Shown here piece by piece: positions 16,383 to 31,486 of a stretch of DNA of 64,000 nt. The DNA is taken from positions 62,001 through 126,000 of the forward strand of contig RYFE02000014.1 of the NCBI GenBank assembly GCA_004138175.2. Reading direction: 5' to 3'. A program made the position numbers and the translations under genes. The notes under the pieces were generated by a model, which did no database searches, was not told where the DNA came from, and was given only the letters and a program-made list of their open reading frames with translations. Each line of letters begins with the position of its first letter. The first letter of the stretch is position 1. The DNA comes from Chloroflexales bacterium ZM16-3. GTDB lineage: Bacteria > Chloroflexota > Chloroflexia > Chloroflexales > Chloroflexaceae.

Positions 16383-17231
16383 CTACGGCACGATGGGCAG
16401 TGGCAGGTAGCCGCCCAGCTCTAGCCAGAGCCGGTAGCGGGCCAGGGCGATCAGGAAGGTGATCGCGAGGATGAGGCCGAGCGTCGCCGGGTGGGCCAGC
16501 TGGCTCATGCGGGTGATCCGCCCGCCCAGGCCGAGGGCCAGGCTTGGGATGAGCATCATCACGGCGGCGAGGTTGCCGACCACGCCGACTGTCACGAGCA
16601 GCGCCAGGGGTGCGCCTAGCAGTGGCGTGTTGAGGGTTATGGCTCCCACGATCAGCGCGTCGACGGCCAGCACAAGCCCGAGATCGCGCCAGCCGCCCAG
16701 CGCTCGCGTGTTATCCTCCACATTGCGGCGCATGGCTGTGTTCAGCACCAGCAGCACCACCATAGCCAGCCCCACGCCCGCGCCCATCCCAGTGAGCAGC
16801 CGCAGGTCGTTGCGCGGCTCGTAGGCGTGGGATATCCCCATCTCGGCCAGGGTCGAGTTCAGCCCATCGGCGGCCATCAGCAGGAACATGCCCAGCACGG
16901 CCAGACTGACCGGGAGGGGCGGCAGGCGGCCCGCCCGCCAGCGCCCGCGCGCCAGCATGACCCCCATTGTCGCCAGGTAGCTCAGGTACATGCCGCTGTC
17001 GCGGGCGCAGAGCGGCATCTGGAAGCCGCCCACGATCAGGTTGTGGGTCTGCGCGCAGATGCCGTGCAGGGCCAGGTAGAGCGCGCGCTCAAGCGAGACG
17101 CCTGGCATCAGGATGAGGCCGAGGAGCAGGCCACCTGCCAGGCCGATCAGCGCCGCCGACCAGCGCTGCTCGGCGGGGGTGGCCACGTCGTCTAGGCTGC
17201 TTATGTGTGGCGCACGAGAGAGCTGTTCCAT
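16383..17231 (-). CDS. DUF2085-family membrane protein
   Basis: 282 residues with about seven membrane helices. The DUF2085 signatures are visible: LHGICAQTHN near residue 55 and PLCARDSGMYLSYLA near 75, where the family normally has a CARCxG-type motif; here the second Cys is replaced by Asp. The ATG is preceded by GGGAGGAACTG. Function of the family is unknown. It stands alone, convergent with the 15014 membrane protein. Confidence 0.78.
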   Translation of the reverse strand: MEQLSRAPHISSLDDVATPAEQRWSAALIGLAGGLLLGLILMPGVSLERALYLALHGICAQTHNLIVGGFQMPLCARDSGMYLSYLATMGVMLARGRWRAGRLPPLPVSLAVLGMFLLMAADGLNSTLAEMGISHAYEPRNDLRLLTGMGAGVGLAMVVLLVLNTAMRRNVEDNTRALGGWRDLGLVLAVDALIVGAITLNTPLLGAPLALLVTVGVVGNLAAVMMLIPSLALGLGGRITRMSQLAHPATLGLILAITFLIALARYRLWLELGGYLPLPIVP

Positions 17232-17734
17232 CAGCAGTTCCTCCCGCGTGGGAGCTGCGTGTTTTGAAGCTTGTCAGAGGAGGCGCATGTCGGCATGTGC
17301 GTCGCCAGCATCTGGCCTATTTTTGCAGGATAGTTCATAGTGTGGTGTCATCCTCTCTGCGGAAGCATCCTGAGGATAGGATACCAGAAACTTCGCTGGC
17401 GCTCAGGACGATTGCGTTAGGGCTGTTGCATTGTCGCTGGCGGCTGAAGCCGCGTCAGGGGGCCTGCGGCCAGCCGCCCGCCTGCGCGGGCGGTTCCGGC
17501 GTCGGCGCAGGCCGACGCCCGGCGCATCGCGCCCCGCCGGCGCGACTTCCAGTCGCTAGCCGGGGGTGCTGAGGATTTTGCACACGCGCCGACATAGCGA
17601 AGCGCTCCGCCGCCGGAGCGCTTCGCTATTGCGACAACGTGGCATAGTGACGCCCGCTTATCGCAAGCGAGCCACCAGGTTCAGTGACTCAGTGGCTCTA
17701 GCAAGCGGCTCAGTGCTCCAGTGTGGGGCAGGCG
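17232..17734. repeat. 503-bp gap with nested GC-rich palindromes, no gene seen
   Basis: A perfect 16-base stem with a 4-base loop lies at 17594-17629 (arms ATAGCGAAGCGCTCCG). From about 17440 to 17560 there are several overlapping short palindromes of the type GGCGGCTGAAGCCG and GCCGCCCGCCTGCGCGGGCGG, reminiscent of the structured element at 29346-29488. No ORF with a plausible start or codon pattern was found. The gap would carry the 3' end of the redox gene string and the promoter region of the DUF2085 gene. Confidence 0.6.
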
Positions 17735-18277
17735 CTATGGCTGGGTGGCCTGGCCCATGCCTGCGGCGATCCCGGCCTCTAGCGCGCTCCGGTTCAGCTC
17801 CTTAAAGCGGGCCGGCACGCTCGCCAGGGTCGCCGCCATGATCGCCTCCTGCGAGACGGCCCCGGTCAGGGCGGTCAGCGCGCCGAGCATCACGATGTTG
17901 GCGGCCACCGCGTTCCCCAGATCCTCGGCGATCTTGGTTGCGCGCACCGGGTAGATCGTCTGCGGGACATCATGGCTGAAGACGATGTCGGGGTCGATGA
18001 TGATCACACAGTCTGGCTTGACCTCGTGCCCGTAGCGGGTGAATGCCTCCTGCGACATGGCCACGAGGATGTCGGCGGTGGAGACGCCGGGGTAGCCGAT
18101 TGGCCCGTCGGCGATGATCACCTCGGCGCGGGCGGCCCCGCCACGGGCCTCGGGGCCGTATGACTGAACCTGACAGGCGATCAGCCCATCGTAGACCGCC
18201 GCCGCCTTGCCTAAGATCACCGCTGCGGTGATCACCCCCTGCCCGCCGAAGCCGCAGATGCGGATCTCTTGCCTCAT
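17735..18277 (-). CDS. korC: 2-oxoacid:ferredoxin oxidoreductase, gamma subunit
   Basis: 180 residues, the gamma-type subunit of a four-subunit 2-oxoglutarate/2-oxoacid:ferredoxin oxidoreductase. It opens with EIRICGFGGQGVITAAVILG, a glycine-rich family hallmark, then SYGPEARGGAARAEVI and DILVAMSQEAF. It overlaps the beta subunit by 4 bp. It is the last gene of the minus-strand redox string. Specificity for 2-oxoglutarate rather than pyruvate or branched-chain acids is inferred from the alpha, beta, gamma, delta gene set and the fumarate-reductase neighbours. Confidence 0.88.
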   Translation of the reverse strand: MRQEIRICGFGGQGVITAAVILGKAAAVYDGLIACQVQSYGPEARGGAARAEVIIADGPIGYPGVSTADILVAMSQEAFTRYGHEVKPDCVIIIDPDIVFSHDVPQTIYPVRATKIAEDLGNAVAANIVMLGALTALTGAVSQEAIMAATLASVPARFKELNRSALEAGIAAGMGQATQP

Positions 18278-19134
18278 AGCTTCACCCGATCAACCAGGGC
18301 GGCCCAGCGGTCGCCGAAGCTCTCACGCTCGATATCCTGGAAGACTCCGATCTTCATCTTGTCGCGCAGGGCCGCCCGCTCCTCCGGCGAGCCGAACTGC
18401 TCGACCCGCTCGTACTCATCGACCAGCACGGTATGGTCGCGGTACCACTGCCAGTTCGGCTCAATCCCGCGCAGCCCGTTGCGCCGACCGTAGGCGGTGG
18501 GGCAGGGGGCCATCATCTCGATCAGGGAGAAGCCGCGCTTGCTGATCCCCTGGGCGATTGATTTGATCGGCTGGGATGGCACGCTGACTGGCCAGCGGGC
18601 CACGTAGGGCGCGCCGAGCGCCTGGGCCAGCTCGCAGATGTCCAGCGGGTGCTCGACATTGCCGTAGGGCGTGGTCGGGCTGAAGCTGCCGGTCGGTGAG
18701 GTCGGCGCGGACTGCCCGCCCGTCATCCCGTAGGTGAAGTTGTTCACCAGAATAACCGTCAGATCCATGTTGCGGCGGATGGTGTGCAGCAGGTGGTTCC
18801 CGCCGATCCCCGAGCCGTCGCCGTCGCCGGTGAAGACGATCACGTTCAGGTCGGGGTTGGCCGCCTTGATCCCGGTGGCGAAGGACAGCGCCCGCCCGTG
18901 CGTGGTGTGCATGCCGTCGGCGTTGACATAGCCGGTCAGGCGCGACGAGCAGCCGATCCCCGAGACGAAGACCGTGCGGTCGAGGTCGAGTCCCACCTGC
19001 TCAACCGCCCAGAGCGTATAGTTCAGCACATTCCCCAGGCCGCAGCCATCGCAGAAGATGGTCGGGAACATCTCCTGGCGCAGGTGGGTCGTCCGCAGCT
19101 CGGCGGCCGTCTTCAGGGTCAGCGTGGTTGACAT
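18274..19134 (-). CDS. korB: 2-oxoacid:ferredoxin oxidoreductase, beta (TPP) subunit
   Basis: 286 residues. Binds thiamine diphosphate and one FeS cluster. FCDGCGLGN near residue 28 carries two of the cluster cysteines, SGIGCSSRL another. The TPP/Mg motif is GDGDGSGIGGNH followed by VNNFTYGMTGGQ. This subunit performs the decarboxylation, or the reverse carboxylation of an acyl-CoA, with ferredoxin as electron carrier. The start ATG lies inside the end of the alpha gene (16-bp overlap), so production is coupled. Confidence 0.92.
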   Translation of the reverse strand: MSTTLTLKTAAELRTTHLRQEMFPTIFCDGCGLGNVLNYTLWAVEQVGLDLDRTVFVSGIGCSSRLTGYVNADGMHTTHGRALSFATGIKAANPDLNVIVFTGDGDGSGIGGNHLLHTIRRNMDLTVILVNNFTYGMTGGQSAPTSPTGSFSPTTPYGNVEHPLDICELAQALGAPYVARWPVSVPSQPIKSIAQGISKRGFSLIEMMAPCPTAYGRRNGLRGIEPNWQWYRDHTVLVDEYERVEQFGSPEERAALRDKMKIGVFQDIERESFGDRWAALVDRVKL

Positions 19135-20297
19135 GACAGCTCCTCCAGGGCATCCAGCAGCTCGGTGGGCGTGTGCAGCTCGCCGCCGATCTTCGCCAGC
19201 AGCCTGACCGCGCAGCGCCCCTCGACGGCCTCGCGGATCGGGTGGTATATCTGGCCCATGTTCATCTCGGGGACGAGGATGGCCCTCACGCGCTCCGCCC
19301 AGCGGGCCACCAGCGCCTCGGGGAAGGGCCAGATGGTGATCAGGCGCAGCAGCCCGGCCTTGATCCCTCTGCCACGGGCCTCCTCGACCACATCGCGGCA
19401 GGTGCGCGCGGTGATGCCGTAGGCGACAATCGCCACATCGCAGTCGTCGGCGTAGAACTCCTCGTAGCGCACAATGTCGTCGGTATGGTCATTAATCTTC
19501 GCGGCCAGGCGGCGCACCAGCTTGTCGTGGATGGCAGGGCTAGAGGTGCGCGGCAGCCCCTGCTCGTTGTGGGTCAGCCCGGTGACGTAGGTGCGGTAGC
19601 CGCTGCCGAAGGGCGCGAAGGCTGGCACGAGGCTCTCGCCGACCTGAAATGGCTTGTAGCCTTCCATGCTCTCGGCGCGGACGCGATCAAACAGCGTGAT
19701 CTCGCTATCGTCGGGGATGACCAGCCGCTCGCGCATGTGGCCCAGCTCGCCGTCGATAAAGAGCAGCACCGGGGTGCGGTACTGCTCGGCCATGTTGAAG
19801 GCGACAATCGTCAGCTCCATCGCCTCCTGCACGCTCGACGGGCAGAGCAGAATGATCTCGTGGTCGCCGTGGGTGCCCCAGCGAGCCTGCATCATATCGC
19901 CATAGGCCCCCATAGTCGGCTGCCCAGTCGAGGGGCCAGAGCGCTGCACATTAATGATCACGCAGGGCGTCTCGGTGATAATCCCGTAGCCCAGGTTCTC
20001 CTGCATCAGCGAGAAGCCCGGGCCAGAGGTGGCAGTCATCACCTTCACGCCAGTCCAGCTCGCGCCGATGATCGCCCCGATGCTAGCGATCTCGTCCTCC
20101 ATCTGGATGTAGCAGCCGCCGAGCTTCGGCAGGATCTCGGACATGCGCTCGGCGACCTCAGTCGCCGGGGTGATCGGGTAGCCTGCGAAGAAGGTGCAGC
20201 CTGCCAGGATGGCTCCGTAGGCGCACGCGTCATCGCCCTGCACAAACTGGACTTTCGCGCCCAGCGCTTGGCGGATACGTTCTCTATACGTGGACAC
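19119..20297 (-). CDS. korA: 2-oxoacid:ferredoxin oxidoreductase, alpha subunit
   Basis: 392 residues. The family pyrimidine-domain motif FFAGYPITPATEVAERM and the strand ATSGPGFSLMQENLG are intact, with QRSGPSTGQPT where the CoA/substrate-facing loop lies. It starts with GTG at 20297, inside the end of the small ferredoxin gene. There is no N-terminal gamma fusion, so the enzyme is of the separate-subunit type. With succinyl-CoA it would make 2-oxoglutarate in the reductive direction. Confidence 0.92.
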   Translation of the reverse strand: MSTYRERIRQALGAKVQFVQGDDACAYGAILAGCTFFAGYPITPATEVAERMSEILPKLGGCYIQMEDEIASIGAIIGASWTGVKVMTATSGPGFSLMQENLGYGIITETPCVIINVQRSGPSTGQPTMGAYGDMMQARWGTHGDHEIILLCPSSVQEAMELTIVAFNMAEQYRTPVLLFIDGELGHMRERLVIPDDSEITLFDRVRAESMEGYKPFQVGESLVPAFAPFGSGYRTYVTGLTHNEQGLPRTSSPAIHDKLVRRLAAKINDHTDDIVRYEEFYADDCDVAIVAYGITARTCRDVVEEARGRGIKAGLLRLITIWPFPEALVARWAERVRAILVPEMNMGQIYHPIREAVEGRCAVRLLAKIGGELHTPTELLDALEELSCQPR

Positions 20298-20505
20298 CGG
20301 CCTCCTCCATCACCGTGATCGCGAAATCGGGGCAGATCAGCTCGCACAGCCGACAGCCGTTGCAGCGCTCGGTCAGGGCCAGCTCAGGCGGGTGGATGCC
20401 CCGCTGCGTGAAGCGCTCGGTGATGTGCAGCGCCTGCGTGGGGCAGTAGATGATGCAGAGCTTGCAGCCCTTGCACCAGCGCTCGTCGATCTGGATCGTG
20501 TGCAT
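20284..20505 (-). CDS. korD: Two-cluster ferredoxin, delta subunit of the 2-oxoacid oxidoreductase
   Basis: 73 residues with two [4Fe-4S] motifs, WCKGCKLCIIYCP and CNGCRLCELICPD, typical of the delta subunit that links the TPP enzyme with free ferredoxin. The second motif ends CPD rather than CP. It precedes and overlaps the alpha gene by 14 bp. It is separated from the fumarate-reductase-like gene upstream by a repeat element of about 110 bp. Confidence 0.9.
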   Translation of the reverse strand: MHTIQIDERWCKGCKLCIIYCPTQALHITERFTQRGIHPPELALTERCNGCRLCELICPDFAITVMEEAGVHV

Positions 20506-20520
20506 AGCTCTTCCCTGGCC

Positions 20521-20632
20521 CTCACCCCCTGCCCCTCTCCCTCAAGGGGAGAGGGGAGATCCCGCGCTAGGACACTTCCTGCCCCCCCCTCTCCCGTTCA
20601 GGGAGAGGGGGCTGGGGGGTGAGGGTCTACAG
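20521..20632. repeat. Dispersed palindromic element (CCCTCACCCC...GGGGTGAGGG type)
   Basis: Two nested copies of the motif CCTCTCCC...GGGAGAGGGG, bounded by CCCTCACCCC and GGGGTGAGGG. The same unit occurs at 24107-24243, 31395-31440, 35276-35382 and 57805-57846. Here it lies between the TfrA-like gene and korD and may act as a processing site or weak terminator inside the redox string. Confidence 0.85.
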
Positions 20633-20637
20633 TTGTC

Positions 20638-22296
20638 CTACAGCGGAATATCCAGGTACCGCTCAAGCGCCTCCTTGCCCCGGTAGTCGGGCAGGATGCG
20701 CGGGGCGGTGCGCGTCGTCTCGATATTGGCCTCGCGCAACATGCCCTCGTAGGCGTCCACGTGGGCCAGGCTGAGCTTGCCGGGCGCGTGCCCGGCCTTG
20801 GCGTAGGCTGCGGCGGCGATGCCGGCCCGCCGCCCGAAGACGTTGAAGTCCAGCAGCGAGTTGCCCATCAGGCGGTTCTTCCCATGCACCCCACCCATCA
20901 CCTCACCGGCGGCGTAGAGCCCCGGCACGCTCGTCGCCCCGTGCTCGTCGGTGGCCACGCCGCCGTTCTGGTAGTGCAGCGTCGGGTAGACCAGGATGGG
21001 GTCGCGGGTCATATCGATCCCGAAGCGGGTGTACATGCGGAACATCGCGGGCAGCGCGGCCCTGATCGTCCCCGGCCCGTGGATGAGATCGACCATGGGC
21101 GAGTCGAGCCAGACCCCGTTGATGCCGTGGTCCGTACCCACGCCCAGCCCGCGCTCGCTGCACTCGCGGATGAAGGCCGATGCCTCCACGTCGCGCGGCT
21201 CCAGCGGGTAGACAAACTGCTCGCCGTTGCGGTTCACCGGCTGCGCCCCCAGGCCGCGCACCTTCTCGGTGATCAGCAGGCCCGCCATCTGCGCCGGGAA
21301 GGCCGCGCCGGTCGGGTGGTACTGCACCGCGTCGAGGTCAACCAGCTCGGCGCCGACCCGGTAGGCCAGCACGAGGCCGTCGCCCGTCGCGCCATAGTGG
21401 TTTGTGGTCGGGTACTGCTGCATGTGCAGTCGGCCCAGCCCGCCGGTGGTGATGATCGTCGCCTTCGCCCGCACAATGTGGTAGCGCTTCGTCTCCAGGT
21501 TGATCAGCACCGCGCCGGCCACCCGCCCATGCTCATCGCAGAGCAGCTCAATCGCCGGGGCAAACTCGACCACCGGGATGCCCAAGTTGCGGGACTCATC
21601 GCGCAGGACGCGCATAATCTCCAGGCCGGTGTAGTCGCGCGCCGAGTGCATGCGGTTGCGCGAGGTGCCGCCGCCGGGGTTCTCCACAAAATGGCCCTGG
21701 GCGTCCTTGTCGTACATCACGCCCAGGTGCTCGTGCCACTGGATGATCTGCGGCGCGTCCTCAACCAGCGCCCGCACCAGCTCGGGCCGGTTGGTGAAGT
21801 GGCCGCCGCCCATCACGTCGAGGAAGTGGTGAGTCGGCGAGTCCTGCGGTCGGTCGGCGGCCTGGATGCCGCCCTGGGCCATCGTCGAGTTTGAGTCGCC
21901 GTGGCGCAGCTTGGTGGCGATCATCACCCGGCTGGGGTCGAGCCCCTCCTTCACCGCCCAGATCGCGGCCACCGTGCCCGCGCCGCCGCCGCCGATCACC
22001 AGCAGGTCAACATCGGAGTCGATCTGGCTCTGGCTCAGGTTGAGGTTCGCCCGCACCAGCGGGCGCGCCTCGAACAGGTCAGCCAGCTCGTGGTTGAGCA
22101 GCAAGCCCTTGCTCGGCCCAAACAGCAGCGGGCGCTTCGCGTCGGCCTTATAGTCGGGGTGAAACTGCGTGAGCAGGGTCTTGCGCTCGTCCAGGCTCAT
22201 GGCCGGGAAGGTGACTCCCAGCCGGGCGGGGCGGGTGCGCTCCACCAGCGCGATGCTCTCGCGCATCGATTCGGGGTAGCCGTCGCTTAGCTCCAT
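20638..22296 (-). CDS. Fumarate reductase/succinate dehydrogenase-type flavoprotein (TfrA-like)
   Basis: 552 residues. A helical leader of about 95 residues (with FHPDYKADAKRPLLFGPSKG) precedes the FAD Rossmann loop VIGGGGAGTVAA. Active-site landmarks of the family follow: MGGGHFTNRPELV, GGGTSRNRMHSARDYTG, YHPTGAAFP and a C-terminal GEVMGGVHGKNRLMGNSLLD. It should convert fumarate and succinate in the cytosol. It starts 2 bp after the FeS subunit stop. The leader resembles soluble thiol:fumarate or rTCA-type reductases more than the membrane SdhA. Substrate and direction are inferred. Confidence 0.82.
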   Translation of the reverse strand: MELSDGYPESMRESIALVERTRPARLGVTFPAMSLDERKTLLTQFHPDYKADAKRPLLFGPSKGLLLNHELADLFEARPLVRANLNLSQSQIDSDVDLLVIGGGGAGTVAAIWAVKEGLDPSRVMIATKLRHGDSNSTMAQGGIQAADRPQDSPTHHFLDVMGGGHFTNRPELVRALVEDAPQIIQWHEHLGVMYDKDAQGHFVENPGGGTSRNRMHSARDYTGLEIMRVLRDESRNLGIPVVEFAPAIELLCDEHGRVAGAVLINLETKRYHIVRAKATIITTGGLGRLHMQQYPTTNHYGATGDGLVLAYRVGAELVDLDAVQYHPTGAAFPAQMAGLLITEKVRGLGAQPVNRNGEQFVYPLEPRDVEASAFIRECSERGLGVGTDHGINGVWLDSPMVDLIHGPGTIRAALPAMFRMYTRFGIDMTRDPILVYPTLHYQNGGVATDEHGATSVPGLYAAGEVMGGVHGKNRLMGNSLLDFNVFGRRAGIAAAAYAKAGHAPGKLSLAHVDAYEGMLREANIETTRTAPRILPDYRGKEALERYLDIPL

Positions 22297-22297
22297 G

Positions 22298-23074
22298 TTA
22301 TACCTCGATCTCGTCCTGGAAGTCTACCGGGTCAACCGGCGAGTTGTAGCTCTTGGTCGCGCTATGGGTCTCGCCGCCGTCGGCGACGGCCTCGAAGCTG
22401 CGCTGCTCATAGCGCGCGCGCAGCTCGGCGGGCGACATGGCCACCAGCTCGTCGAGCGCGCCCTGGTAGTGGCCCGCCACCAGCTCGGCCACCCGCGCGG
22501 ACAGATCGGGCGCGAGGGGGGTGCCGAACTTGCCATAGATGCGCCGGGCCAGCAGGCCCACCGCGTAGTGCTTAATGTCGGCGGGGCAGCGGCTGGAGCA
22601 GATCCCGCACGAGATGCAGTCGAACGAGAGCATAGCTGCGCGCTCGACATCGCCGCGCAGGGCGGCCTGGATGTAGTCCATCACGTGCAGGCCCTGTGGG
22701 CAGGATCGCGTGCATGTATTGCAGGCGACGCAGCCAGCGATCTCGGGGAAGTGCTGGAGCAGCGTGTTCGGCTGCGGCGTGATCGTTTGAAGCTCATAGG
22801 GCTTGGTCATCAGCGGCACAAAGGGCATCTGGACAAGGCACATCCCATCTTCGACCAGCGTCTGGCATGCCAGGGCGGTGAAGATCCGGTGGCTGTCATC
22901 GCGGCGGTAGAGCGTCGGGCATGCGCCGCAGAAGCCGCCACGGCAGCCGGCGCCGCGCACCAGCTTGTAGCCAGCGTACTCGATCGCCGCCATAATCGTC
23001 AGCCCGCTGGGCACACTATAGTGCTTCCCCATCAGCTCCATGCTGATCATCGGAGCCTGCTCGGTCATAGTCAT
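22298..23074 (-). CDS. Fumarate reductase-type iron-sulfur subunit (TfrB/SdhB-like)
   Basis: 258 residues from ATG 23074, chosen because AAAGGAG sits seven bases upstream; a longer frame to 23170 has no such site. Residues 44, 49, 52 and 70 (CRGGFCGACP ... CQ) are a plant-type [2Fe-2S] set. Two more motifs follow: Cys115-118-121-125 (CVACNTCTRSC) and Cys153-156-159-163 (CISCGICSSRC). SdhB-type proteins carry 2Fe-2S, 4Fe-4S and 3Fe-4S clusters; both motifs here keep all four cysteines. Methanogen TfrB has a C-terminal CCG domain, which is missing here and supplied by the separate HdrB next door. Confidence 0.85.
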   Translation of the reverse strand: MTMTEQAPMISMELMGKHYSVPSGLTIMAAIEYAGYKLVRGAGCRGGFCGACPTLYRRDDSHRIFTALACQTLVEDGMCLVQMPFVPLMTKPYELQTITPQPNTLLQHFPEIAGCVACNTCTRSCPQGLHVMDYIQAALRGDVERAAMLSFDCISCGICSSRCPADIKHYAVGLLARRIYGKFGTPLAPDLSARVAELVAGHYQGALDELVAMSPAELRARYEQRSFEAVADGGETHSATKSYNSPVDPVDFQDEIEV

Positions 23075-23185
23075 GCCTGAACTCCTTTCGCGAGGGGCTG
23101 ATGCGTTGCCGTGAGGCTCAAGCCCTCGGCTCTCGGACGCGAATGCCGCGTAGGTGGCCTTCGCAAACAAATAGCCCGCGACTTC

Positions 23186-24064
23186 TTAGTCGCCGGGCGT
23201 CGGGGCGTGGACGAGGTTGTGGCGCTCTAGCAGCGGCAGCAGGGCGATCTGCTGCTCTTCCAGCCCAAGCTGATCTGGGTCAAGCCCGAAGGCGATGCCC
23301 ATAAGCTGGGTGTAGTAGAAGATCGGCATCTGCGCGCCGGATTGTGGCTGGAGCGCGTCGAAGTTGTAGTGGCAGAGCGGGCACGAGAGCACGATCGCCT
23401 CGGCCCCGCCCGCGCGGGCCTGCTCCGTCGTTGCCGACACCCGCTGCGTCACAACCTCATCGCGGTTAACGACGTGGTACGCCCCGCAGCACTGGGTCTG
23501 GAGCGAGCCCTCGACCACCGTGGCACCCAGGGCCAGCATCAGGTCGCGCAGCACCGCCGGTGTCTCAGGGTCATCAATGCCAACCTCTGCTGGGCGCAGC
23601 AGCTTGCACCCGTAGTAGGGGTAGACGCTCAGGCCGCGCAGCGGTCGGCGCACCCGCGCCCGGATCTTCGCGAAGCCCACCCGGTCGCGCAGCACCTGGA
23701 GCAGATGCAACACATCGGCGCCGCCATCATAGCTCAGATCATCCCCGCTGGTGGCGCTGATCGCCGCGATCTGCTCGGGGTGCCGCTGGGCCAGCAGGTT
23801 GGCCCGCCCCAGCGTGTTAAAGCACATATCGCACAGCGTCGCCACCTCGTCCGCGCCCTGCTCGCGCAGCCTGGCGAAGACACGCACCGGGGCCATGTGG
23901 CGGATCAGGTTGTCGCTGGTGAGCGAGTGGACGACGCCGCAGCAGTTCCACTCATCCATCTCGCGCAGCTCGACGCCCAGCGCGCCCAGCACGGCCAGCG
24001 CCGCGTCCTCGTGCTGGCGCGCCGACGCCTTCATCGTACAACCGGGATAGTAGGCTATCTGCAT
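23186..24064 (-). CDS. Heterodisulfide reductase B-like protein with two CCG domains
   Basis: About 292 residues from ATG 24064, beginning in the family style (MQIAYYPGCT); a GTG at 24085 is an alternative. Both CCG cluster motifs are complete: Cys9, Cys41-Cys42, Cys78-X2-Cys81, and Cys153, Cys192-Cys193, Cys228-X2-Cys231. In HdrB each motif holds a non-cubane [4Fe-4S] centre and the pair reduces a heterodisulfide. Related CCG proteins also replace membrane anchors in SdhE-type succinate dehydrogenases. It is placed between HdrC and the TfrB-like gene, so either role is possible. Confidence 0.88.
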   Translation of the reverse strand: MQIAYYPGCTMKASARQHEDAALAVLGALGVELREMDEWNCCGVVHSLTSDNLIRHMAPVRVFARLREQGADEVATLCDMCFNTLGRANLLAQRHPEQIAAISATSGDDLSYDGGADVLHLLQVLRDRVGFAKIRARVRRPLRGLSVYPYYGCKLLRPAEVGIDDPETPAVLRDLMLALGATVVEGSLQTQCCGAYHVVNRDEVVTQRVSATTEQARAGGAEAIVLSCPLCHYNFDALQPQSGAQMPIFYYTQLMGIAFGLDPDQLGLEEQQIALLPLLERHNLVHAPTPGD

Positions 24065-24106
24065 GCTAGATCCAACACCTTTCACATAAGGGATCTACCG
24101 TCGCCC

Positions 24107-24243
24107 AGCCCTCACCCCCCCTGCCCCCTCTCCCGCATGCGGGAGAGGGGGAGCGTACACAACCAGCGTGTTCGGCTGGCACGGGCATGGCTTGGGGTGC
24201 CCCCTCTCCCGCCGCAGCGGGAGAGGGGGACAGGGGGTGAGGG
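24107..24243. repeat. Two copies of the CCCTCACCCC palindromic element inside the hdr genes
   Basis: Copy 1 at about 24107-24153 (TCTCCCGCATGCGGGAGA centre) and copy 2 at about 24200-24243 (TCTCCCGCCGCAGCGGGAGA centre) fill the 214 bp between hdrC and hdrB on the minus strand. The second has the same core as 31398-31420. Likely mobile or processing elements. No separate gene is seen in this gap. Confidence 0.85.
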
Positions 24244-24278
24244 CCTTTCATGCAGTATTGCCCATTTTGCACTTTGCA

Positions 24279-24683
24279 TTACCCTGTATTCCGTCGCATA
24301 CTCGCCACCAGCGCGATCGGCGGCAGCTTGCGCAGGGCCGCCGCAGGCAGCTGCGCCACCACCAGATGGTCGCCGTTCTCCTGGATGCTGATCTGGCGCA
24401 GCGCCCCCATGATCCTGGCTATGTCGATATCTCGCGGGCAGCGCTCGACGCAGCCATCGCAGCCCACGCAGACCCAGAAGCTCTGCCGGTCGAGCACGTC
24501 CGGCAGGCCGAAGCGCAGGTGGCGGATGATCGCGTCCGGCCCAAGGTCCATCGACCCGCGCAGCGGGCAGCTCGCCGCGCAGGTGCCGCACTGGTAGCAG
24601 CCGGCCAGGTTCTGTCCGCTCAGGGTCTCAACCTTGCGCAGCAGCTCGTCGGCCTCGCCGCCCGCGCGCATCGTGATCGTCAT
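24279..24683 (-). CDS. Heterodisulfide reductase C-like [4Fe-4S] protein
   Basis: 134 residues, slightly shorter than methanogen HdrC. Two clusters: Cys29-32-35-39 (CYQCGTCAASCP) and Cys72-75-78-82 (CVGCDGCVERCP), the first in the form usual for HdrC. It would carry electrons from the HdrA flavoprotein to HdrB. It overlaps the upstream ferredoxin-type gene by 4 bp. Confidence 0.88.
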   Translation of the reverse strand: MTITMRAGGEADELLRKVETLSGQNLAGCYQCGTCAASCPLRGSMDLGPDAIIRHLRFGLPDVLDRQSFWVCVGCDGCVERCPRDIDIARIMGALRQISIQENGDHLVVAQLPAAALRKLPPIALVASMRRNTG

Positions 24684-25564
24684 TGCGCCCTCCCATCCTG
24701 CTCAATCTTCCGGCAGATCAGGCTGAGCGGGATATCCTCCGGGCAGACTCGCTCGCACTCATCGCAGCCGGTGCAGCGCCCGGCCAGGTGGTAGGCCCGC
24801 ATCATGTGGAAGGAGAATACGCTCGCTGGCTCGCGGGTCTGCCGTCGCGGGTCGTCGCGCGGCAGGGTCAGCGAGCACTCTTTGCAGAAGCAGAGCGGGC
24901 AGACGGTCTGGCAGGCGTAGCAGAGCGTACACTTGCTCAGCTGCTCGCTCCAGAAGGCCAGCCGGCCGGGCGCGTCGAGCGCCTCTAGCGCGCGCACCCC
25001 GGCGAGGCGGTCTCCGACGGGCGCTGCCGCTGCGGCGGGCGTCACCTCGCCTATCAGCTCGTCGTACAGCTCGGGGATATGGCTCGTGCAGGTTTCGCAC
25101 TTCGCCAGCAGCATCCCGTCCTGCGGGTGGCGGCTAATCTCCTCGCCCACGCTCAACAGCAGCTCGTTGCCATCCTCAGCCAGCTCATCCACCGGCCCCG
25201 AGACGGCGGCCGCCAGCTGCTCGGGGTCGGCCATGCCCTCGCAGACCACGCCGATAATATGTAGGCGCTCGCGATCAAGCTGGCGCTGTGACAGCAGCTG
25301 CGCCACTGAGCGCGCGTCGCAGCCCTTGAGGGCGACGCCCACCCGCCGCCCGGCGTGCTTCAGCAGGGCGCCCGCCAGATTCGGCACGCAGACCGCGTTC
25401 CAGACGAGTCGCTCGGCCTCGGCGGGGGTGCGGGCGGCGAAGGGGGCCACCCGCAGCGGGTTCGAGCCCTGGCGGTAGCCCAGGAATACCTCGACCGTGC
25501 CATCGGATAGTAGGGCGCTGGCCCGCGCGCGCAGCTGATCTTCAATCAGGGCTGTTACTGTCAT
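24680..25564 (-). CDS. FeS electron-transfer protein of the Hdr complex (FrhB/FdhB-like)
   Basis: 294 residues. The N-terminal part (about 30-115) contains RVGVALKGCDARSVAQLL and IIGVVCEG, a pattern seen in F420-hydrogenase beta-type and related hydrogenase or formate dehydrogenase subunits. Cysteines at 212, 215, 218, 222 and 225, 227, 230 form one cysteine-dense site, and 264, 267, 270, 274 a second ferredoxin motif ending CP. Such proteins join HdrA/MvhD to an outside donor or acceptor. The partner (NAD(P)H, F420, ferredoxin) cannot be read from the sequence. It overlaps both neighbours by 4 bp. Confidence 0.7.
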   Translation of the reverse strand: MTVTALIEDQLRARASALLSDGTVEVFLGYRQGSNPLRVAPFAARTPAEAERLVWNAVCVPNLAGALLKHAGRRVGVALKGCDARSVAQLLSQRQLDRERLHIIGVVCEGMADPEQLAAAVSGPVDELAEDGNELLLSVGEEISRHPQDGMLLAKCETCTSHIPELYDELIGEVTPAAAAAPVGDRLAGVRALEALDAPGRLAFWSEQLSKCTLCYACQTVCPLCFCKECSLTLPRDDPRRQTREPASVFSFHMMRAYHLAGRCTGCDECERVCPEDIPLSLICRKIEQDGRAQ

Positions 25565-25980
25565 CGCTGCACCTTCAGCCCGAGCGGCCCGAGCGCCCGC
25601 AGCTCCTCGGTCATCTCGGTCACTACGGAGGCGAAGCGCGTCCCCTCCGACGCCGAGACCCAGGCCAGCTTCAGGCGGCGCTGGTCGATGCCGAAGAAGT
25701 TCAGCAGGTTAGCGAACAGCTCGATCCGATCCTGTGCGTAGTTATTCCCCGAGATATAGTGACAGTCGCCCTGGTGGCAGCCCGCCACCAGCACCCCGTC
25801 GGCCCCGTTCTCGAAGGCGCGGGCGATAAAGAGCGGGTCGATCCTGCCGCTGCACATCACGCGCACGATGCGGATGTTTGGCGGGTACTGCGCGCGGCTT
25901 ACCCCGGCCGTGTCGGCGCCCGCGTAGGCGCACCAGCTACAGAGCATGCCCAGAATCTTTGGCTCGAAGGTCTCTTCCAT
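25561..25980 (-). CDS. MvhD/HdrA-linked [2Fe-2S] protein
   Basis: 139 residues of the MvhD family. The five-cysteine pattern Cys14-X2-Cys17, Cys43, Cys68 and Cys73 (SWCAYAGADTAG, VMCSGRIDP, GCHQGDCHY) is the family signature. In methanogens MvhD connects hydrogenase to HdrA; here no hydrogenase gene is present in the window, so the donor must be another module, possibly the FrhB-like protein directly downstream. It follows hdrA by about 72 bp. Confidence 0.9.
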   Translation of the reverse strand: MEETFEPKILGMLCSWCAYAGADTAGVSRAQYPPNIRIVRVMCSGRIDPLFIARAFENGADGVLVAGCHQGDCHYISGNNYAQDRIELFANLLNFFGIDQRRLKLAWVSASEGTRFASVVTEMTEELRALGPLGLKVQR

Positions 25981-26052
25981 TCCATCTCCTGCCAGGAGGC
26001 GTGAAGGGCGCGGCCCTAACCCCCAACTCCTAACCCCTGCGCTGAAAGCGCA

Positions 26053-29000
26053 TTAGATCGTCCACGCCGCCTCGATCATCGCCAGCACCTGCCCGTCGCT
26101 GAAGCCGCGCTGCTGGAGCGCGCCCGAGGGGCAGGCCGCGATGCAGGTCCCGCAGCCCTTGCACAGCACCTCGGCGATATTGAGCACCTTGCGCGTCTCA
26201 TCCAGGGTCATCGCCCCATACGGGCAGTGCGGTATGCAGTCGCCGCAGCCTGAGCAGGCCGCCTCGTCAACCTCGGCGACGATCGGCTCGACGGTGACTC
26301 GCCCGCGCAGCAGCGGGATTGCCGCGCGCGAGGCCGCGCCCGCCGCCTGGGCGATCGTGTCCGGGATCGTGCGCGGGTAGTGGTCGGCTCCGCACAAGTA
26401 GACCCCGTTGGTGGTGAAGTCGAGCGGGCGGATCTTGGCGTGGGCCTCGCTGTAGAAGTTCAGCTCGTCGGTGGAGACCTTGAGCATCTGCTTGAGCCGT
26501 GGCGTCTGCGCGTCGCCTTGTAGCGCCGCCGTTAGCACCACCAGATCTGCCTCAATCGCCAGATCCTCGCGCAGCAGCGTATCGTAGACCTTCACCGTCA
26601 GCCCTCTGCCGCGCGCCCGCACCTCGGGCGGCCGCCCTCCGTCGTAGCGGATGCGGAACGGCTGCACCTCCGCGACCATCTTGGTGAAGTACTCTTCCTG
26701 GCCCTTGCCGTACACGCGCATGTCCTGGTAGAGCATATAGATGCTGGCCCCGGGCGCGGCCCGCTGGAGCATGCGCGCGTTCTTCACCGAGATCGTGCAG
26801 CCGATCCGGCAGCAGGCCGGGTTCTCCTCGTTCATCGAGCCGGCGCAGTTGACCATGACGATCGAGCGGGGCGTGCCGAGCGTGCCGTCGCGCAGGCGGC
26901 GCTCAAGCTCTAGCTGCGTGATCACCCGTGGGTCGTCGCCATAGCCGTAGCGCCCGCGCAGATCCGCCTCGCGGTAGCCGGTCGCCACGATCATCGCGCC
27001 CACCTGGATCTGCGTGACTGCGCCGCCCACACCCTCGTCGAGCGTGACTCGGAAGTTGCCCACGTAGCCGTCGATCTCGCGCACCTCGGCGCTGAGGAAG
27101 ACTTTGATCCGGGGGCGCTGCTGCACCGCGCGCACCAGCTGCTCGCGCACCTCGCTGGCCGGGGTGTCGCTCGGGGCCAGCGTCGCCAGCGTGTTGAGCT
27201 TGCCTCCCAGCACGCTCTCGCGCTCGACGAGGAATGTCTCAATGCCCATGTCGGCCATGGTGACGGCCGCTGTCATCCCGGCCACTCCGCCGCCGATCAC
27301 CAGGCAGATGGGCGTGACCTCGACGGTCTGGGCGGGCAGTGCCTGTAGCTTGTCGGCGCGGGCCACCGCCATGCGCACCAGATCCTCGGCCTTGGCCGTG
27401 GCCGGGGCGTTGCCGGTCGAGTGAACCCACGAGCACTGGTTGCGGATGTTGGCCATCTCGAAGAGGCCGGGGTTTAGCCCGACCTCGGCGATGGTCTGCT
27501 GAAAGACTGGCCCGTGGGTGATCGGCGAGCAGGCGGCCACCACCACCCGGTTGAGGCCATGCTCCTCGACCGATGCCCTGATCCGGCGCTGGGTGTCCTC
27601 CGAGCATGCGAAGGTGCATGTCTCCGACAAGACGACGTTGGGTAGCCCGCGGGCGTAGTCGGCGACGGCGGGCACATCGAGGTAGCCTGCGATATTCTTG
27701 CCACAGCCGCAGACGAAGACCCCGGCCCGCGACTCGTCCTCAGACACATCGCGCTCGGCCAGCGGCGCGGCCTCGGCGGCGCGCTTGCGCATGCTGATCG
27801 GGATGGCGGCCATGCCGGCTGCGCCAGATGCCTGGGCCACGCTGTCGGGGATGTCGTTCGGCCCCTGGCTGCCGCCCGCCAGAAAGATGCCCTCGCGGGT
27901 GGACTGAAGCGGGGCGAGCAGATCATTGTGCGAGACAAAGAAGCCGTACTCGTCCACCTCGACGCCGAGCGCCTTGGCCAGCCGCCGGTTGTCGGGCGCG
28001 GGCACCACCGCCGTCGAGAGCACCAGCATATCGAACTGCTCGTGCTGAACCTCGCCGCTCAGCGTATCCTCATACGTGATCGTCAGGCTCTTATCGGAGT
28101 TCTCTTCGACCGAGGCGGGGCGGCCGCGCACATAGCGCACCCCGTGGTCGGCGGCCCGGCGGTAGTACTGCTGAAAATCTTTGCCGTAGGCCCGCAGATC
28201 CATATAGAAGATCGTCGCCTGTGCGCCGGGGGCGTGCTCAAGCGTGATCATCGCCTCCTTGGTCGCGTACATGCAGCAGATCTTCGAGCAGTAGGGGTAG
28301 CCGCCCTTCAGGCTGCGCGATCCGACACACTGAACCCACGCCACCCGCGCGGGCGTCTCGCCGTCGGAGGGCCGGGCGATCTTGCCGTCGGTGGGGCCGG
28401 AAGCCGCGATGACCCGCTCGTACTGGAGCGCGGTGAGCACATTCGCGAAGCGGCCGTAGCCATACTCCTTGCGCAGCTCGGTCGGCTCAAGCACCTCAAA
28501 GCCGGTGGCCACGATGATGCTGCCCACATTCACCATGAGCGCCTGCGAGCGCTTGAGGAACGAGACCGCGCCCACATCGCAGATCCGGTCGCATGCGCCG
28601 CAGCCAACGCAGTTCGCATAGTCGATCGTGTAGATCGCTGGCACCGCCTGGGGAAACTGTAGGTAGACCGCCTTGCGCTTCGAGAGCCCAGCGTTAAACT
28701 CGTCGTCAACCTCAACCGGGCAGACCCGCGCGCAGTCGCCGCAGCCCTTGCACTTCTCAGGATCGATATAGGTTGTCTGACGCCAGATCGCCACCTCGAA
28801 GCTGCCGACTGAGCCAGTCACCCGCTCGACCCGTGCGCTGGTGAGCAGCGTGATATTCGGGTGCCGGGCCAGCTCGACCATCTTGGGGGCGGCGATGCAG
28901 ATTGCGCAGTCGTTAGTGGGGAAGGTCTTGTCGAGCTTGACCATGGTGCCGCCAACGCTGGCTTGTCGCTCGACCACAAGCACCCGGTAGCCTTTATCGG

Positions 29001-29079
29001 CAAGATCGAGGGCAGCTTGCATACCGCTGATGCCAGCGCCAATAACCAGCGAATCATAGGCACGCGTTTCCATGGACAT
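26053..29079 (-). CDS. hdrA: Double HdrA: two fused HdrA flavoprotein modules with ferredoxin domains
   Basis: 1,008 residues. Module 1 (about 1-430) has an FAD loop GAGISG at 14-19 and an inserted ferredoxin pair, Cys110-113-116-120 and Cys157-160-163-167. Module 2 (about 452-1008) starts with the HdrA N-terminal domain (FVCGCGKNIAG), a second FAD loop GGGVAG at 596-601, and a C-terminal ferredoxin pair (CSGCGDCIPHCP and CKGCGTCIAACP). Both modules have the cysteine-rich segment near the flavin (YCSKICC; ACCRIGC). HdrA is the bifurcating flavoprotein of Hdr complexes. It is the first gene of the redox string; AAAGGGG precedes the ATG. Confidence 0.9.
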   Translation of the reverse strand: MSMETRAYDSLVIGAGISGMQAALDLADKGYRVLVVERQASVGGTMVKLDKTFPTNDCAICIAAPKMVELARHPNITLLTSARVERVTGSVGSFEVAIWRQTTYIDPEKCKGCGDCARVCPVEVDDEFNAGLSKRKAVYLQFPQAVPAIYTIDYANCVGCGACDRICDVGAVSFLKRSQALMVNVGSIIVATGFEVLEPTELRKEYGYGRFANVLTALQYERVIAASGPTDGKIARPSDGETPARVAWVQCVGSRSLKGGYPYCSKICCMYATKEAMITLEHAPGAQATIFYMDLRAYGKDFQQYYRRAADHGVRYVRGRPASVEENSDKSLTITYEDTLSGEVQHEQFDMLVLSTAVVPAPDNRRLAKALGVEVDEYGFFVSHNDLLAPLQSTREGIFLAGGSQGPNDIPDSVAQASGAAGMAAIPISMRKRAAEAAPLAERDVSEDESRAGVFVCGCGKNIAGYLDVPAVADYARGLPNVVLSETCTFACSEDTQRRIRASVEEHGLNRVVVAACSPITHGPVFQQTIAEVGLNPGLFEMANIRNQCSWVHSTGNAPATAKAEDLVRMAVARADKLQALPAQTVEVTPICLVIGGGVAGMTAAVTMADMGIETFLVERESVLGGKLNTLATLAPSDTPASEVREQLVRAVQQRPRIKVFLSAEVREIDGYVGNFRVTLDEGVGGAVTQIQVGAMIVATGYREADLRGRYGYGDDPRVITQLELERRLRDGTLGTPRSIVMVNCAGSMNEENPACCRIGCTISVKNARMLQRAAPGASIYMLYQDMRVYGKGQEEYFTKMVAEVQPFRIRYDGGRPPEVRARGRGLTVKVYDTLLREDLAIEADLVVLTAALQGDAQTPRLKQMLKVSTDELNFYSEAHAKIRPLDFTTNGVYLCGADHYPRTIPDTIAQAAGAASRAAIPLLRGRVTVEPIVAEVDEAACSGCGDCIPHCPYGAMTLDETRKVLNIAEVLCKGCGTCIAACPSGALQQRGFSDGQVLAMIEAAWTI

Positions 29080-29345
29080 GCGGCCCCTTTATGGTCAGCA
29101 TCGGGGAACGACACAAACAGAGGCGGGGATGTGCACGAGCATGACGCAAAAAAAACAGGAATCACAAGGGTCTTGTTCTCTTGTGGCCCTGCATCATTGC
29201 AAGCTGTGCGGTTGATTTAGTTCTTTGTGTGATTACTAGCATTTTACTCTATGCTTGAGCTTGCTGTGAGTAACAAAACCGCCATCTTTGTTTAGGGAAC
29301 ATCACATATCGCTGTACTGAAGCAATGCGTCCTGATGGGTGAGCG

Positions 29346-29488
29346 GCAATACCGCGTGCGTCGACGCTCGCCGGGGGCTGAAGCCCCCGGCTGAGTCTAC
29401 GAAGGCCGCTTCAGCGGCCTTCGTAGACTCAGCCCGGCCGTTTACGGCCGGGCGATTCAGGGTGACAGCGTGCCTTTTGCGGTATTGC
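29346..29488. repeat. 143-bp structured element with 10-bp terminal inverted repeats
   Basis: Ends are GCAATACCGC and GCGGTATTGC, perfectly complementary. Inside are nested hairpins: GGGGGCTGAAGCCCCC, a long stem (CTGAGTCTACGAAGGCCGCT with its complement) and CGGCCGTTTACGGCCG. A shorter relative with the same left end and a similar right end lies at 35091-35204. It sits in the divergent space between hdrA and atpC (29080-29664), which shows no gene and no strong consensus promoter that I can defend. Confidence 0.75.
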
Positions 29489-29664: not shown

Positions 29665-30069
29665 ATGCCCCCAGCATCCATGAACCTGAAGCTGCTCCTC
29701 CCGTTCCGCGTCTTCGCCGAGAAGACCGGCGTCTCGCGCATCGTCGCCGAGAGCCGCGCGGGCTCGTTCGGGCTCCTGCCGCACCGGCTCGACTGCGTCG
29801 CCGCGCTTGCGCCAGGGATCTTGATCTACGAGAGCGAGGCCGAGGGCGAGGTGTATGTGGCCGTCGATGAAGGGGTGCTCGTCAAGACCGGCCAGGACGT
29901 GCTGATCTCTGTGCGCAACGCCATCGCAGGGACGGATCTCGGCCAGCTGCACGCGGCGGTCGAGCGCGAGTTTCTCAGCCTGAACGAGCGCGAGATGAAT
30001 GTCCGCTCGGTGATGGCTAAGATGGAGAGCAGCTTCATCCGCCGCTTTGTGGAGTTCCACCGTGAGTGA
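29665..30069 (+). CDS. atpC: N-type ATPase epsilon subunit (AtpC)
   Basis: 134 residues with the F1 epsilon barrel: MNLKLLLPFRVFAE, SRAGSFGLLPHRLDCVAALAPG and EVYVAVDEGVLVKTGQDVL; the C-terminal helical part is short. In N-ATPase operons the order is atpD-C-Q-R-B-E-F-A-G; here this gene is first and atpD is missing. The ATG at 29665 has no strong ribosome binding site; MNLKLL at 29680 is an alternative start. It couples rotation of gamma to catalysis in an alternate F-type pump. Confidence 0.88.
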   Translation: MPPASMNLKLLLPFRVFAEKTGVSRIVAESRAGSFGLLPHRLDCVAALAPGILIYESEAEGEVYVAVDEGVLVKTGQDVLISVRNAIAGTDLGQLHAAVEREFLSLNEREMNVRSVMAKMESSFIRRFVEFHRE

Positions 30070-30400
30070 ATCACCAGAGAGTAAGCGCGCCAAGGAGCAG
30101 ATTGCGTTCAGCCGCGAGGTTTCCGCGAAGGCGGCCCGCAAGCTCAAGGCCCAGCGCAGCGGAGTGCCGGGCGTCTGGTTTGGCCTGGGTATGACCGGGC
30201 TGATCGGCTGGTCGGTGGTCGTCCCCACCCTGCTCGGCGTGGCCGCCGGTATCTGGATAGACAGCCACTACCCCGGTAGCTATTCCTGGACGCTGATGCT
30301 ACTGGTGATCGGCCTGCTTATCGGCTGCCTGAATGCCTGGCATTGGGTTGACAAGGAAGACAGGGAGATGCGCAAAGAGCAAGGGGACGATTATGAGTGA
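30062..30400 (+). CDS. atpQ: AtpQ, AtpI-like membrane protein of N-type ATPase
   Basis: About 112 residues from GTG 30062, which overlaps the atpC stop by 8 bp and has GGAG upstream. A basic N-terminal half is followed by two membrane helices (GLIGWSVVVPTLLGVAAGIWID and LMLLVIGLLIGCLNAW, quoted in part). The glycine-rich first helix ending in GIWID is characteristic of AtpI/AtpQ. Family role: assembly of the c ring or Mg/Ca handling. The following atpR overlaps it by 8 bp. Confidence 0.82.
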   Translation: MSESPESKRAKEQIAFSREVSAKAARKLKAQRSGVPGVWFGLGMTGLIGWSVVVPTLLGVAAGIWIDSHYPGSYSWTLMLLVIGLLIGCLNAWHWVDKEDREMRKEQGDDYE

Positions 30401-31394: not shown

Positions 31395-31486
31395 CCCCCC
31401 CTCTCCCGCCGCAGCGGGAGAGGGGGCTGGGGGGTGAGGGCCATCCGGCGGCAAAGGGTCAAGCTACAAACCTTGTCTGAGAGGAA
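31395..31486. repeat. Dispersed palindromic element inside the atp operon
   Basis: A CCCCTCTCCCGCCGCAGCGG-type hairpin, then GGGGGGTGAGGG and a tail CGGCGGCAAAGGGTCAAGCTACAA...CTTGTCTGA. The same tail follows the copies at 35382-35425 and 57849-57880, so the element is a defined unit of about 90-100 bp. It separates atpB from atpE and could alter the ratio of c-subunit mRNA. Confidence 0.8.

What the first reader, a model, noticed from the sequence alone, without database searches (positions are those of the whole stretch)
17735..29079. Long redox gene string joining HdrA-HdrA, MvhD, FrhB-like, HdrBC, TfrAB-like and 2-oxoglutarate-type oxidoreductase
Eleven co-directional genes with mostly 4-16 bp overlaps encode a complete Hdr core, a soluble fumarate-reductase-type pair and all four subunits of a ferredoxin-dependent 2-oxoacid oxidoreductase. 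Fumarate reduction (about +30 mV) is exergonic relative to NADH or thiols, while 2-oxoglutarate synthase needs low-potential ferredoxin. I suggest that fumarate reduction could be bifurcated by the double HdrA to make this ferredoxin, which Kor uses at once for the next carboxylation step of a reductive TCA branch. The reverse, succinate oxidation with confurcation, is also possible.
Basis: partly seen in the sequence, partly recalled or inferred. Interest (0 to 1): 0.85.

Follow-up and report, generated by a model that had tools for sequence, protein, structure and literature searches.

The report
Hdr-linked soluble fumarate reductase with Kor
Eleven neighbouring genes of a green filamentous phototroph probably build a soluble enzyme that reduces fumarate and may use the energy set free to charge ferredoxin for the neighbouring 2-oxoglutarate enzyme; similar ideas were already proposed for a clostridium and for tubeworm symbionts, but this lineage lacks the usual NADH-input subunits.

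Summary
The string is real: eleven minus-strand genes, HdrA-HdrA', MvhD, FrhB/FdhB-like, HdrC, HdrB, a small Fe-S subunit, an FrdA-like flavoprotein and KorDABC, in an Oscillochloris-like genome (Chloroflexota). Order is kept in 11 distinct loci of the family, while window flank genes are not (one weak match). The flavoprotein keeps the catalytic residues of fumarate reductases, has Asn where succinate dehydrogenases carry the FAD-linking His, and forms a clade apart from the genome's SdhA and NadB. In Bacillota the same pair ends an operon fumarase-HdrBC-HdrA-MvhD-FlxCBA-FrdBA (18 of 20 loci fetched). This supports a soluble, Hdr-linked fumarate reductase; bifurcation to ferredoxin and supply of Kor are inferred. 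The idea is in print for Pseudoclostridium (bifurcating fumarate reductase) and for tubeworm symbionts and Thioflavicoccus (Hdr-Tfr-Kor clusters). New here: the phototroph lineage, the fused double HdrA, and the absence of the NADH-input subunits FlxAB, which a sister locus still has. The donor is therefore open; the genome encodes CofC and CofD of F420 synthesis. Verdict: a new variant of a known kind.

The parts
26053..29079 (-). HdrA-HdrA' fusion, 1008 aa. First half: FAD domain with inserted 2x[4Fe-4S]. Second half: HdrA N-terminal domain, second FAD domain without the insert, C-terminal 2x[4Fe-4S]
   Evidence: PDB HdrA matches at 10-381, 443-620, 861-1005; Cys motifs invariant in 8 sequences
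25561..25980 (-). MvhD/FlxD (FlpD family) connector subunit
   Evidence: PF02662 E=4.7e-54
24680..25564 (-). FrhB/FdhB-like (FlxC-like) electron-input subunit, C-terminal 2x[4Fe-4S]
   Evidence: 7bkb_E, 8rvu_E; TM-score by query 0.70 and 0.67, rmsd 7.6 and 9.8; FdhB/ElpB chains, E<=1e-42
24279..24683 (-). HdrC
   Evidence: TIGR03290 E=4.4e-20, below the curated cut-off
23186..24085 (-). HdrB/SdhE-type protein with two CCG domains; real start probably 24064
   Evidence: CCG; HdrB 146.5 bits, MFR SdhE 140.3 bits, both below cut-off
22298..23170 (-). FrdB-like small subunit: 2Fe-2S domain plus 2x[4Fe-4S]; real start probably 23074 or 23068
   Evidence: Fer4_9 over, Fer2_4 just under cut-off; 12 Cys invariant in 14 sequences
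20638..22296 (-). FrdA-like flavoprotein (short C-terminus, about 90-aa N-terminal extension, Asn136 at the FAD-linking site)
20284..20505 (-). KorD (2x[4Fe-4S])
   Evidence: best hit OGOR_delta 62 bits, cut-off 125
19119..20297 (-). KorA
   Evidence: NF006412 572 bits (cut-off 411)
18274..19134 (-). KorB
   Evidence: best hit OGOR beta 245 bits (cut-off 364), best PDB hit 8ys5_C, 2-oxoglutarate ferredoxin oxidoreductase beta
17735..18277 (-). KorC (gamma)
   Evidence: NF006323 205 bits (cut-off 235)

Best explanation
The cluster encodes a soluble Hdr-linked fumarate reductase that works together with KorABCD. Electrons from a mid-potential two-electron donor enter through the FdhB/FlxC-like subunit and MvhD to a flavin of HdrA-HdrA'. 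One branch runs through HdrC, HdrB and the FrdB-like subunit to the FrdA-like flavoprotein, where fumarate becomes succinate; the other leaves at low potential to ferredoxin. The neighbouring Kor can use that ferredoxin to carboxylate succinyl-CoA to 2-oxoglutarate, so one fumarate would pay for one 2-oxoglutarate. Shown: gene content, conserved order, kept catalytic residues and cluster ligands. Inferred: the complex, bifurcation, direction, donor and the Kor coupling. The usual NADH subunits FlxAB are absent, so NADH does not enter by the known route; F420H2 is the candidate I rank first.
For: Order of the eleven genes kept in 11 distinct loci, window flank genes not found in their flanks except weak matches of one ORF. 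FrdBA sits with Hdr in Bacillota (18 of 20 loci fetched), by annotation in Ilyobacter polytropus and in 6 of 11 loci of other Chloroflexota families. Fumarase is encoded beside it in 19 of 20 Bacillota loci, an aspartate ammonia-lyase in Ilyobacter. Catalytic residues kept, FAD-linking His is Asn. The FrhB-like subunit is closest to FdhB/ElpB, the input arm of methanogen Hdr complexes. Two NADH or F420H2 to fumarate plus ferredoxin is about -33 to -57 kJ/mol. CofD and CofC present.
Against: No expression, complex or activity data. FlxAB absent and no close FlxA in the genome, so the donor is unknown; the FrhB-like protein lacks stretches of FdhB and its flavin site was not tested. A gap of 13-1255 nt precedes KorD in 12 loci. 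Kor was seen beside FrdBA only in this family: not in 13 other Chloroflexota loci (one weak KorC-like match 8 kb away) nor in 20 Bacillota loci. The genome also has a dimeric Kor and SucA. The catalytic residues are shared with NadB, so they alone do not prove fumarate reduction.
Confidence: 0.45

Rival explanations
1. Non-bifurcating ferredoxin:fumarate reductase. Kor oxidises 2-oxoglutarate, its ferredoxin feeds HdrA-HdrA', and the electrons drain into fumarate: a soluble, redox-balanced dark fermentation branch.
For: FlxAB is missing in this lineage but present in a sister locus, while Kor is conserved beside FrdA; ferredoxin to fumarate is strongly downhill (potentials as); the inserted ferredoxin domain of HdrA is kept.
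Against: The FdhB-like and MvhD input arm is kept in all 11 complete loci and would be superfluous.
Confidence: 0.2
2. Hdr-Frd and Kor are two independent units that merely stay adjacent; Kor is a general 2-oxoglutarate synthase.
For: A gap precedes KorD in all 12 loci measured, 1255 nt in one.
Against: KorD is the next gene found by my queries in 14 of 14 loci of the family whose contig reaches that far; no terminator-like site in the string; Kor lies with Hdr and Tfr in gammaproteobacteria as well (passages of PMC6315080 and PMC11636981).
Confidence: 0.18
3. Fumarate reduction through a thiol/disulfide pair: HdrB handles an unknown disulfide and FrdBA works separately, as methanogen Tfr and Hdr do.
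For: HdrB keeps two CCG domains and scores like HdrB.
Against: The small subunit shows no HdrB-like domain as TfrB has; some FrdA genes are followed by a NuoF-like gene instead; CoM/CoB-type thiols are poor donors for bifurcation.
Confidence: 0.1
4. Reverse mode: succinate and ferredoxin oxidation are confurcated to a mid-potential carrier during photoheterotrophic growth.
For: Kor and Frd are neighbours in the oxidative cycle too; reversibility of HdrA complexes is recalled, not tested.
Against: Uphill by the same 33-57 kJ/mol under standard conditions; Asn instead of the FAD-linking His in 47 of 47 family members aligned, while another SDH-type flavoprotein of the genome has the His.
Confidence: 0.07

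Closest known systems
Flx-Hdr-linked fumarate reductase of Pseudoclostridium thermosuccinogenes ('succinate operon')
   Same: Flx-Hdr complex and fumarate reductase in one operon with fumarase and a possible transporter; coupling to ferredoxin proposed (passages of PMC7282089; the 2019 preprint itself was not held)
   Different: There the NADH dehydrogenase part is present, and the passages name no Kor in the operon. I did not compare its sequences.
rTCA clusters of tubeworm symbionts and Thioflavicoccus mobilis
   Same: korABCD and tfrAB interspersed with flxABCD-hdrABC; a complex serving OGOR and fumarate reductase suggested (passages of PMC6315080, and PMC11636981)
   Different: They have flxABCD and ATP citrate lyase in the cluster; here FlxAB is absent and HdrA is doubled and fused. 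Sequences not compared.
Methanogen Fdh-Hdr and Elp-Hdr complexes (7bkb, 8rvu)
   Same: FdhB/ElpB-MvhD input arm on HdrABC
   Different: Heterodisulfide as acceptor, no FrdBA, HdrA not a fused pair
Methanogen thiol:fumarate reductase TfrAB
   Same: Flavoprotein best matches TfrA
   Different: Small subunit does not match TfrB; the CCG protein is a separate gene
FrdA followed by a NuoF-like gene (Pseudoroseomonas L128, Cupriavidus L127, second copy in Chloroploca L072)
   Same: Same flavoprotein family
   Different: NuoF-like neighbour (below NuoF cut-offs) instead of Hdr

Membership tests
HdrABC-MvhD electron-bifurcating complex | HdrA with FAD domain, inserted and C-terminal ferredoxin domains, cluster ligands | tested here: met
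   the pieces are spread over two fused halves
HdrABC-MvhD electron-bifurcating complex | HdrB with two CCG domains, HdrC, MvhD | tested here: met
   HdrB and HdrC score below the equivalog cut-offs
HdrABC-MvhD electron-bifurcating complex | Coupled ferredoxin reduction | not testable with these tools
   needs an enzyme assay
[quoted passage not shown]
   absent between FrhB and HdrC in 13 loci; best FlxA-like place in the genome 27% identity (FlxB was not searched genome-wide); present in sister locus L131
Soluble fumarate reductase (FrdA type) | Catalytic residues of the SdhA/FrdA family (roles recalled) | tested here: met
   H327, T343, E344, R347, H441, R475; in 47 family rows the T site is T in 43, S in 3, A in 1. 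NadB L011 has the same set, so this does not tell FrdA from NadB
Succinate:quinone oxidoreductase | FAD-linking His, SdhB-type small subunit, membrane anchor | tested here: not met
   Asn136; small subunit with two 4Fe-4S motifs and no SdhB match; none of the eleven matched an anchor family. L013 elsewhere in the genome has the His
Methanogen TfrAB | TfrB = SdhB-type part fused to an HdrB-like part | tested here: not met
L-aspartate oxidase NadB | equivalog score | tested here: not met
   275 bits, cut-off 452.75; L011 elsewhere scores 533; separate in the tree, with long outgroup branches
Four-subunit 2-oxoglutarate:ferredoxin oxidoreductase | alpha, beta, gamma, delta subunits | tested here: met
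Four-subunit 2-oxoglutarate:ferredoxin oxidoreductase | substrate 2-oxoglutarate | tested here: inconclusive
   OGOR models and structure 8ys5 rank first for D and B, but D, B and C are below curated cut-offs, and A's best structure is a 2-keto acid enzyme (1yd7)

The most novel reading that the evidence does not exclude
In Oscillochloridaceae, phototrophs whose type II reaction centre cannot reduce ferredoxin (recalled), the ancestral NADH-input subunits of a bifurcating fumarate reductase were lost and another donor, perhaps F420H2 at the FdhB-like subunit, took over. Its low-potential branch goes straight to the neighbouring Kor, so that reducing fumarate pays exactly for making 2-oxoglutarate from the succinate formed, and may also feed nitrogenase.
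Probability: 0.2. Interest if true: 0.8.

Novelty: new variant of a known kind. Interest (0 to 1): 0.55.

Why it matters
How phototrophs with type II reaction centres obtain low-potential ferredoxin is an open question (my framing, from general knowledge). This cluster offers one testable route and names organisms that carry it (Ca. Chloroploca, Ca. Viridilinea, uncultured Oscillochloris). The comparison also shows one fumarate reductase pair next to three different electron inputs (Flx-Hdr, Hdr without FlxAB, NuoF-like), a natural experiment in how such complexes are rewired.

Tried and rejected
Considered and set aside: L-aspartate oxidase; quinone-linked SDH; the small subunit as SdhB/TfrB. 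Its predicted model has mean pLDDT 68.5 and only low TM-scores (0.19-0.32 by query in the rows shown) to Rnf, FrdB, HdrC and others: inconclusive. Nitrogenase and RuBisCO as correlates: among the 41 genomes of the family the FrdA family goes with nifH over cut-off in 13 of 17 against 9 of 24 without it (Fisher p=0.025), and with RuBisCO in 8 of 17 against 3 of 24 (p=0.029; one weak hit, G126, dropped); neither is corrected for kinship, so I give them no weight. Promoter and terminator scan of 17600-29400: no terminator-like site; 2 promoter-like sites (one on the minus strand upstream of HdrA, one on the plus strand at 22968), 1.5 expected by chance. Literature on the cluster in Oscillochloris, Chloroploca or Viridilinea: one search listed 2 papers (not opened), one search listed 5 (one opened, passages only), searches showed only the top 20 of 1,355 and top 12 of 693; none of the titles or passages seen describes it, which is a weak test.
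Full report
OBSERVATION. Family scans give HdrA (fused pair), MvhD/FlpD, an FrhB/FdhB-like Fe-S protein, HdrC, HdrB, a 2Fe-2S plus 2x[4Fe-4S] protein, an FrdA/TfrA-like flavoprotein and KorD, A, B, C. Five of ten junctions overlap; five are gaps of 1 to 193 nt.

WHERE IT IS. The nearest relatives of the flavoprotein lie in uncultured Oscillochloris, Ca. Chloroploca, Ca. Viridilinea and one unnamed Chloroflexi MAG, 83-92% identical over the best segment. The window's genome (6.27 Mb, 127 contigs) also encodes an SDH-type flavoprotein (L013, 1198 bits, cut-off 866) and NadB (L011), SucA, NifH over cut-off, RuBisCO, further POR/Kor-type alpha chains including a dimeric KorAB, and CofD and CofC over their cut-offs.

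CONSERVATION. The flavoprotein family was found in 17 of 41 genomes of the family (E<=1e-120) and in 20 of 400 genomes drawn from the phylum (E<=1e-150). I looked at the neighbourhood in all 17. Five are cut by contig ends and hold, in order, what fits (L001, L004, L007, L130, L132). One, L131, differs (below). KorD is the next gene found by my queries after the flavoprotein in 14 of 14 loci whose contig reaches that far (in L004 after 1255 nt). As a control, 14 window flank ORFs were sought in 14 locus records (10 distinct loci besides the window; visible flanks up to 7 kb, some nearly none): the only matches were 25.6% and 29.2% identities to one 851-aa flank ORF, in L060 and L003. The string therefore moves as a unit.

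THE FLAVOPROTEIN. Against E. coli SdhA and others and a family alignment, H327, T343, E344, R347, H441 and R475 match the catalytic set (roles recalled). NadB L011 has the same set, so this does not tell the two apart. The FAD-linking His is Asn136 in 47 of 47 rows of the family clade; SDH-type L013 has His, NadB L011 Asn. From work on E. coli FrdA (recalled), a non-covalent FAD keeps fumarate reduction but impairs succinate oxidation. The family has about 90 residues before the FAD domain (88-133, partly set by ORF starts) and 38-69 residues from the end of the FAD domain on, against 133 in L011 and 175 in L013. In a tree of 50 rows the 47 form one clade (100/100), with this family's 13 rows (100/100) and the Bacillota 21 rows (100/100) as separate groups; the outgroup branches are long and treekit warns about them.

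THE SMALL SUBUNIT. It has invariant ligands for one 2Fe-2S and two 4Fe-4S clusters in 14 sequences, no SdhB or TfrB match and HdrC-like and ferredoxin-like stretches. Its structure model was too poor to decide; weak hits include E. coli FrdB and HdrC.

THE INPUT ARM. The FrhB-like protein, predicted at pLDDT 81, matches FdhB of the Methanospirillum Fdh-Hdr complex and ElpB of the Methanothermobacter Elp-Hdr complex best, though with large rmsd; profile searches agree. In Elp-Hdr, by the passages of PMC12350162 that I saw, ElpB takes hydride from F420H2 and electrons pass by the MvhD-type ElpC to HdrA. Here the protein is shorter than FdhB; the flavin site is untested.

THE SAME PAIR ELSEWHERE. 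In the order of the Ruminococcus locus L010, 52 of 295 genomes have the flavoprotein. I fetched 20 of the 52 (the 19 best scores after L010's own genome, and G706 from lower down). In 18 the order is HdrB-HdrC-HdrA-MvhD-FlxC-FlxB-FlxA-FrdB-FrdA; L106 is cut by its contig end and shows the last six; L114 has FrdBA without Hdr. L010 itself, cut at its start, shows HdrA to FrdA. A fumarase gene lies beside the unit in 19 of 20 (L106 is cut), in L114 directly before FrdB; three of three tested pass the fumC cut-off. An AspT-type transporter gene follows in 11 of 20; no Kor was found in these 20. In Ilyobacter polytropus the annotation shows nine genes in the same order after an aspartate ammonia-lyase (of these I scanned the lyase, which passes one of two aspartase cut-offs, and FrdA). 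Fumarase and aspartase both make fumarate, so fumarate is the likely substrate. In Pseudoroseomonas, Cupriavidus and a second copy in Chloroploca, a NuoF-like gene follows FrdA instead (below NuoF cut-offs). Of 11 loci in other Chloroflexota families, 6 have Hdr genes beside FrdBA (L062, L065, L067, L068, L069, L074) and 5 show none by my queries (L063, L064, L066, L070, L071); none has Kor beside it, apart from a weak KorC-like match about 8 kb away in L063.

THE NADH SUBUNITS. FlxA and FlxB lie between FrhB and HdrC in L131 of the same family. The flavoprotein of L131 is sister to the 14 others in the tree (98/97). In the 13 other loci that cover this junction FlxAB is absent, and the closest FlxA-like places in the window's genome are 27% identical. 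The simplest history is one loss, though a gain in L131 is not excluded. L131 ends about 300 bases after the flavoprotein, so its Kor is not visible. The donor of the window's complex is therefore unknown. F420H2 is possible because FdhB-type subunits use it and CofC and CofD are present; this is an inference.

MECHANISM AND ENERGETICS. With +33 mV for fumarate, -320 mV for NADH and -70 mV for menaquinone (PMC5861303 passages) and recalled values for F420, sulfide, thiols and ferredoxin (-420 to -500 mV), splitting two donor pairs between fumarate and ferredoxin gives -33 to -49 kJ/mol for NADH, -41 to -57 for F420H2, -14 to -30 for a sulfide-like donor, and positive values for menaquinol and CoM/CoB-type thiols. 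One ferredoxin pair per fumarate equals the need of Kor for the succinate made. All of this is inference from gene content.

PRIOR ART. PMC7282089 (passages) describes the 'succinate operon' of Pseudoclostridium and cites a 2019 preprint by Koendjbiharie and van Kranenburg on a fumarate reductase potentially involved in bifurcation (not held). PMC6315080 (passages) reports korABCD and tfrAB interspersed with flxABCD-hdrABC in tubeworm symbionts and Thioflavicoccus and suggests a complex. PMC11636981 (passages) reports that in Endoriftia this cluster behaves as an operon, tfrAB excepted, with KorABCD between HdrA and HdrBC. My searches (partly capped lists) showed no paper on this cluster in Oscillochloridaceae.

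VERDICT. A real, well conserved, probably functional unit; most likely a soluble Hdr-linked fumarate reductase beside Kor. New variant of a known kind: new lineage, fused double HdrA, no FlxAB.

Noticed in passing
window 20506-20637, 24086-24278, 31397-31426, 35303: REP-like GC-rich palindromes sit in the two largest gaps of the string and elsewhere; 8 matches of a 13-mer (up to 1 mismatch) against 0.4 expected; strong predicted hairpins in the two gaps. They could affect transcript levels.
   Followed up: partly
L116 3701-5370 (window's genome): CofC and CofD genes side by side, both over curated cut-offs: the phototroph may make F420.
   Followed up: partly
L072, L127, L128: FrdA followed by a NuoF-like gene: a possible soluble NADH:fumarate reductase in a Chloroploca second copy, Cupriavidus and Pseudoroseomonas.
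   Followed up: partly
L131 7200-7976: A Uma2-type gene between MvhD and FlxC of the sister cluster.
   Followed up: no
window 15014-16291: TsoY family protein, 472 bits (cut-off 150), near the string.
   Followed up: no
window 16383-17231: DUF2085 membrane protein downstream on the same strand.
   Followed up: no
window 30047-30400: Divergent ATPase_gene1-type protein upstream of HdrA; the ORFs behind it read like ATP synthase subunits (recalled, not scanned).
   Followed up: no
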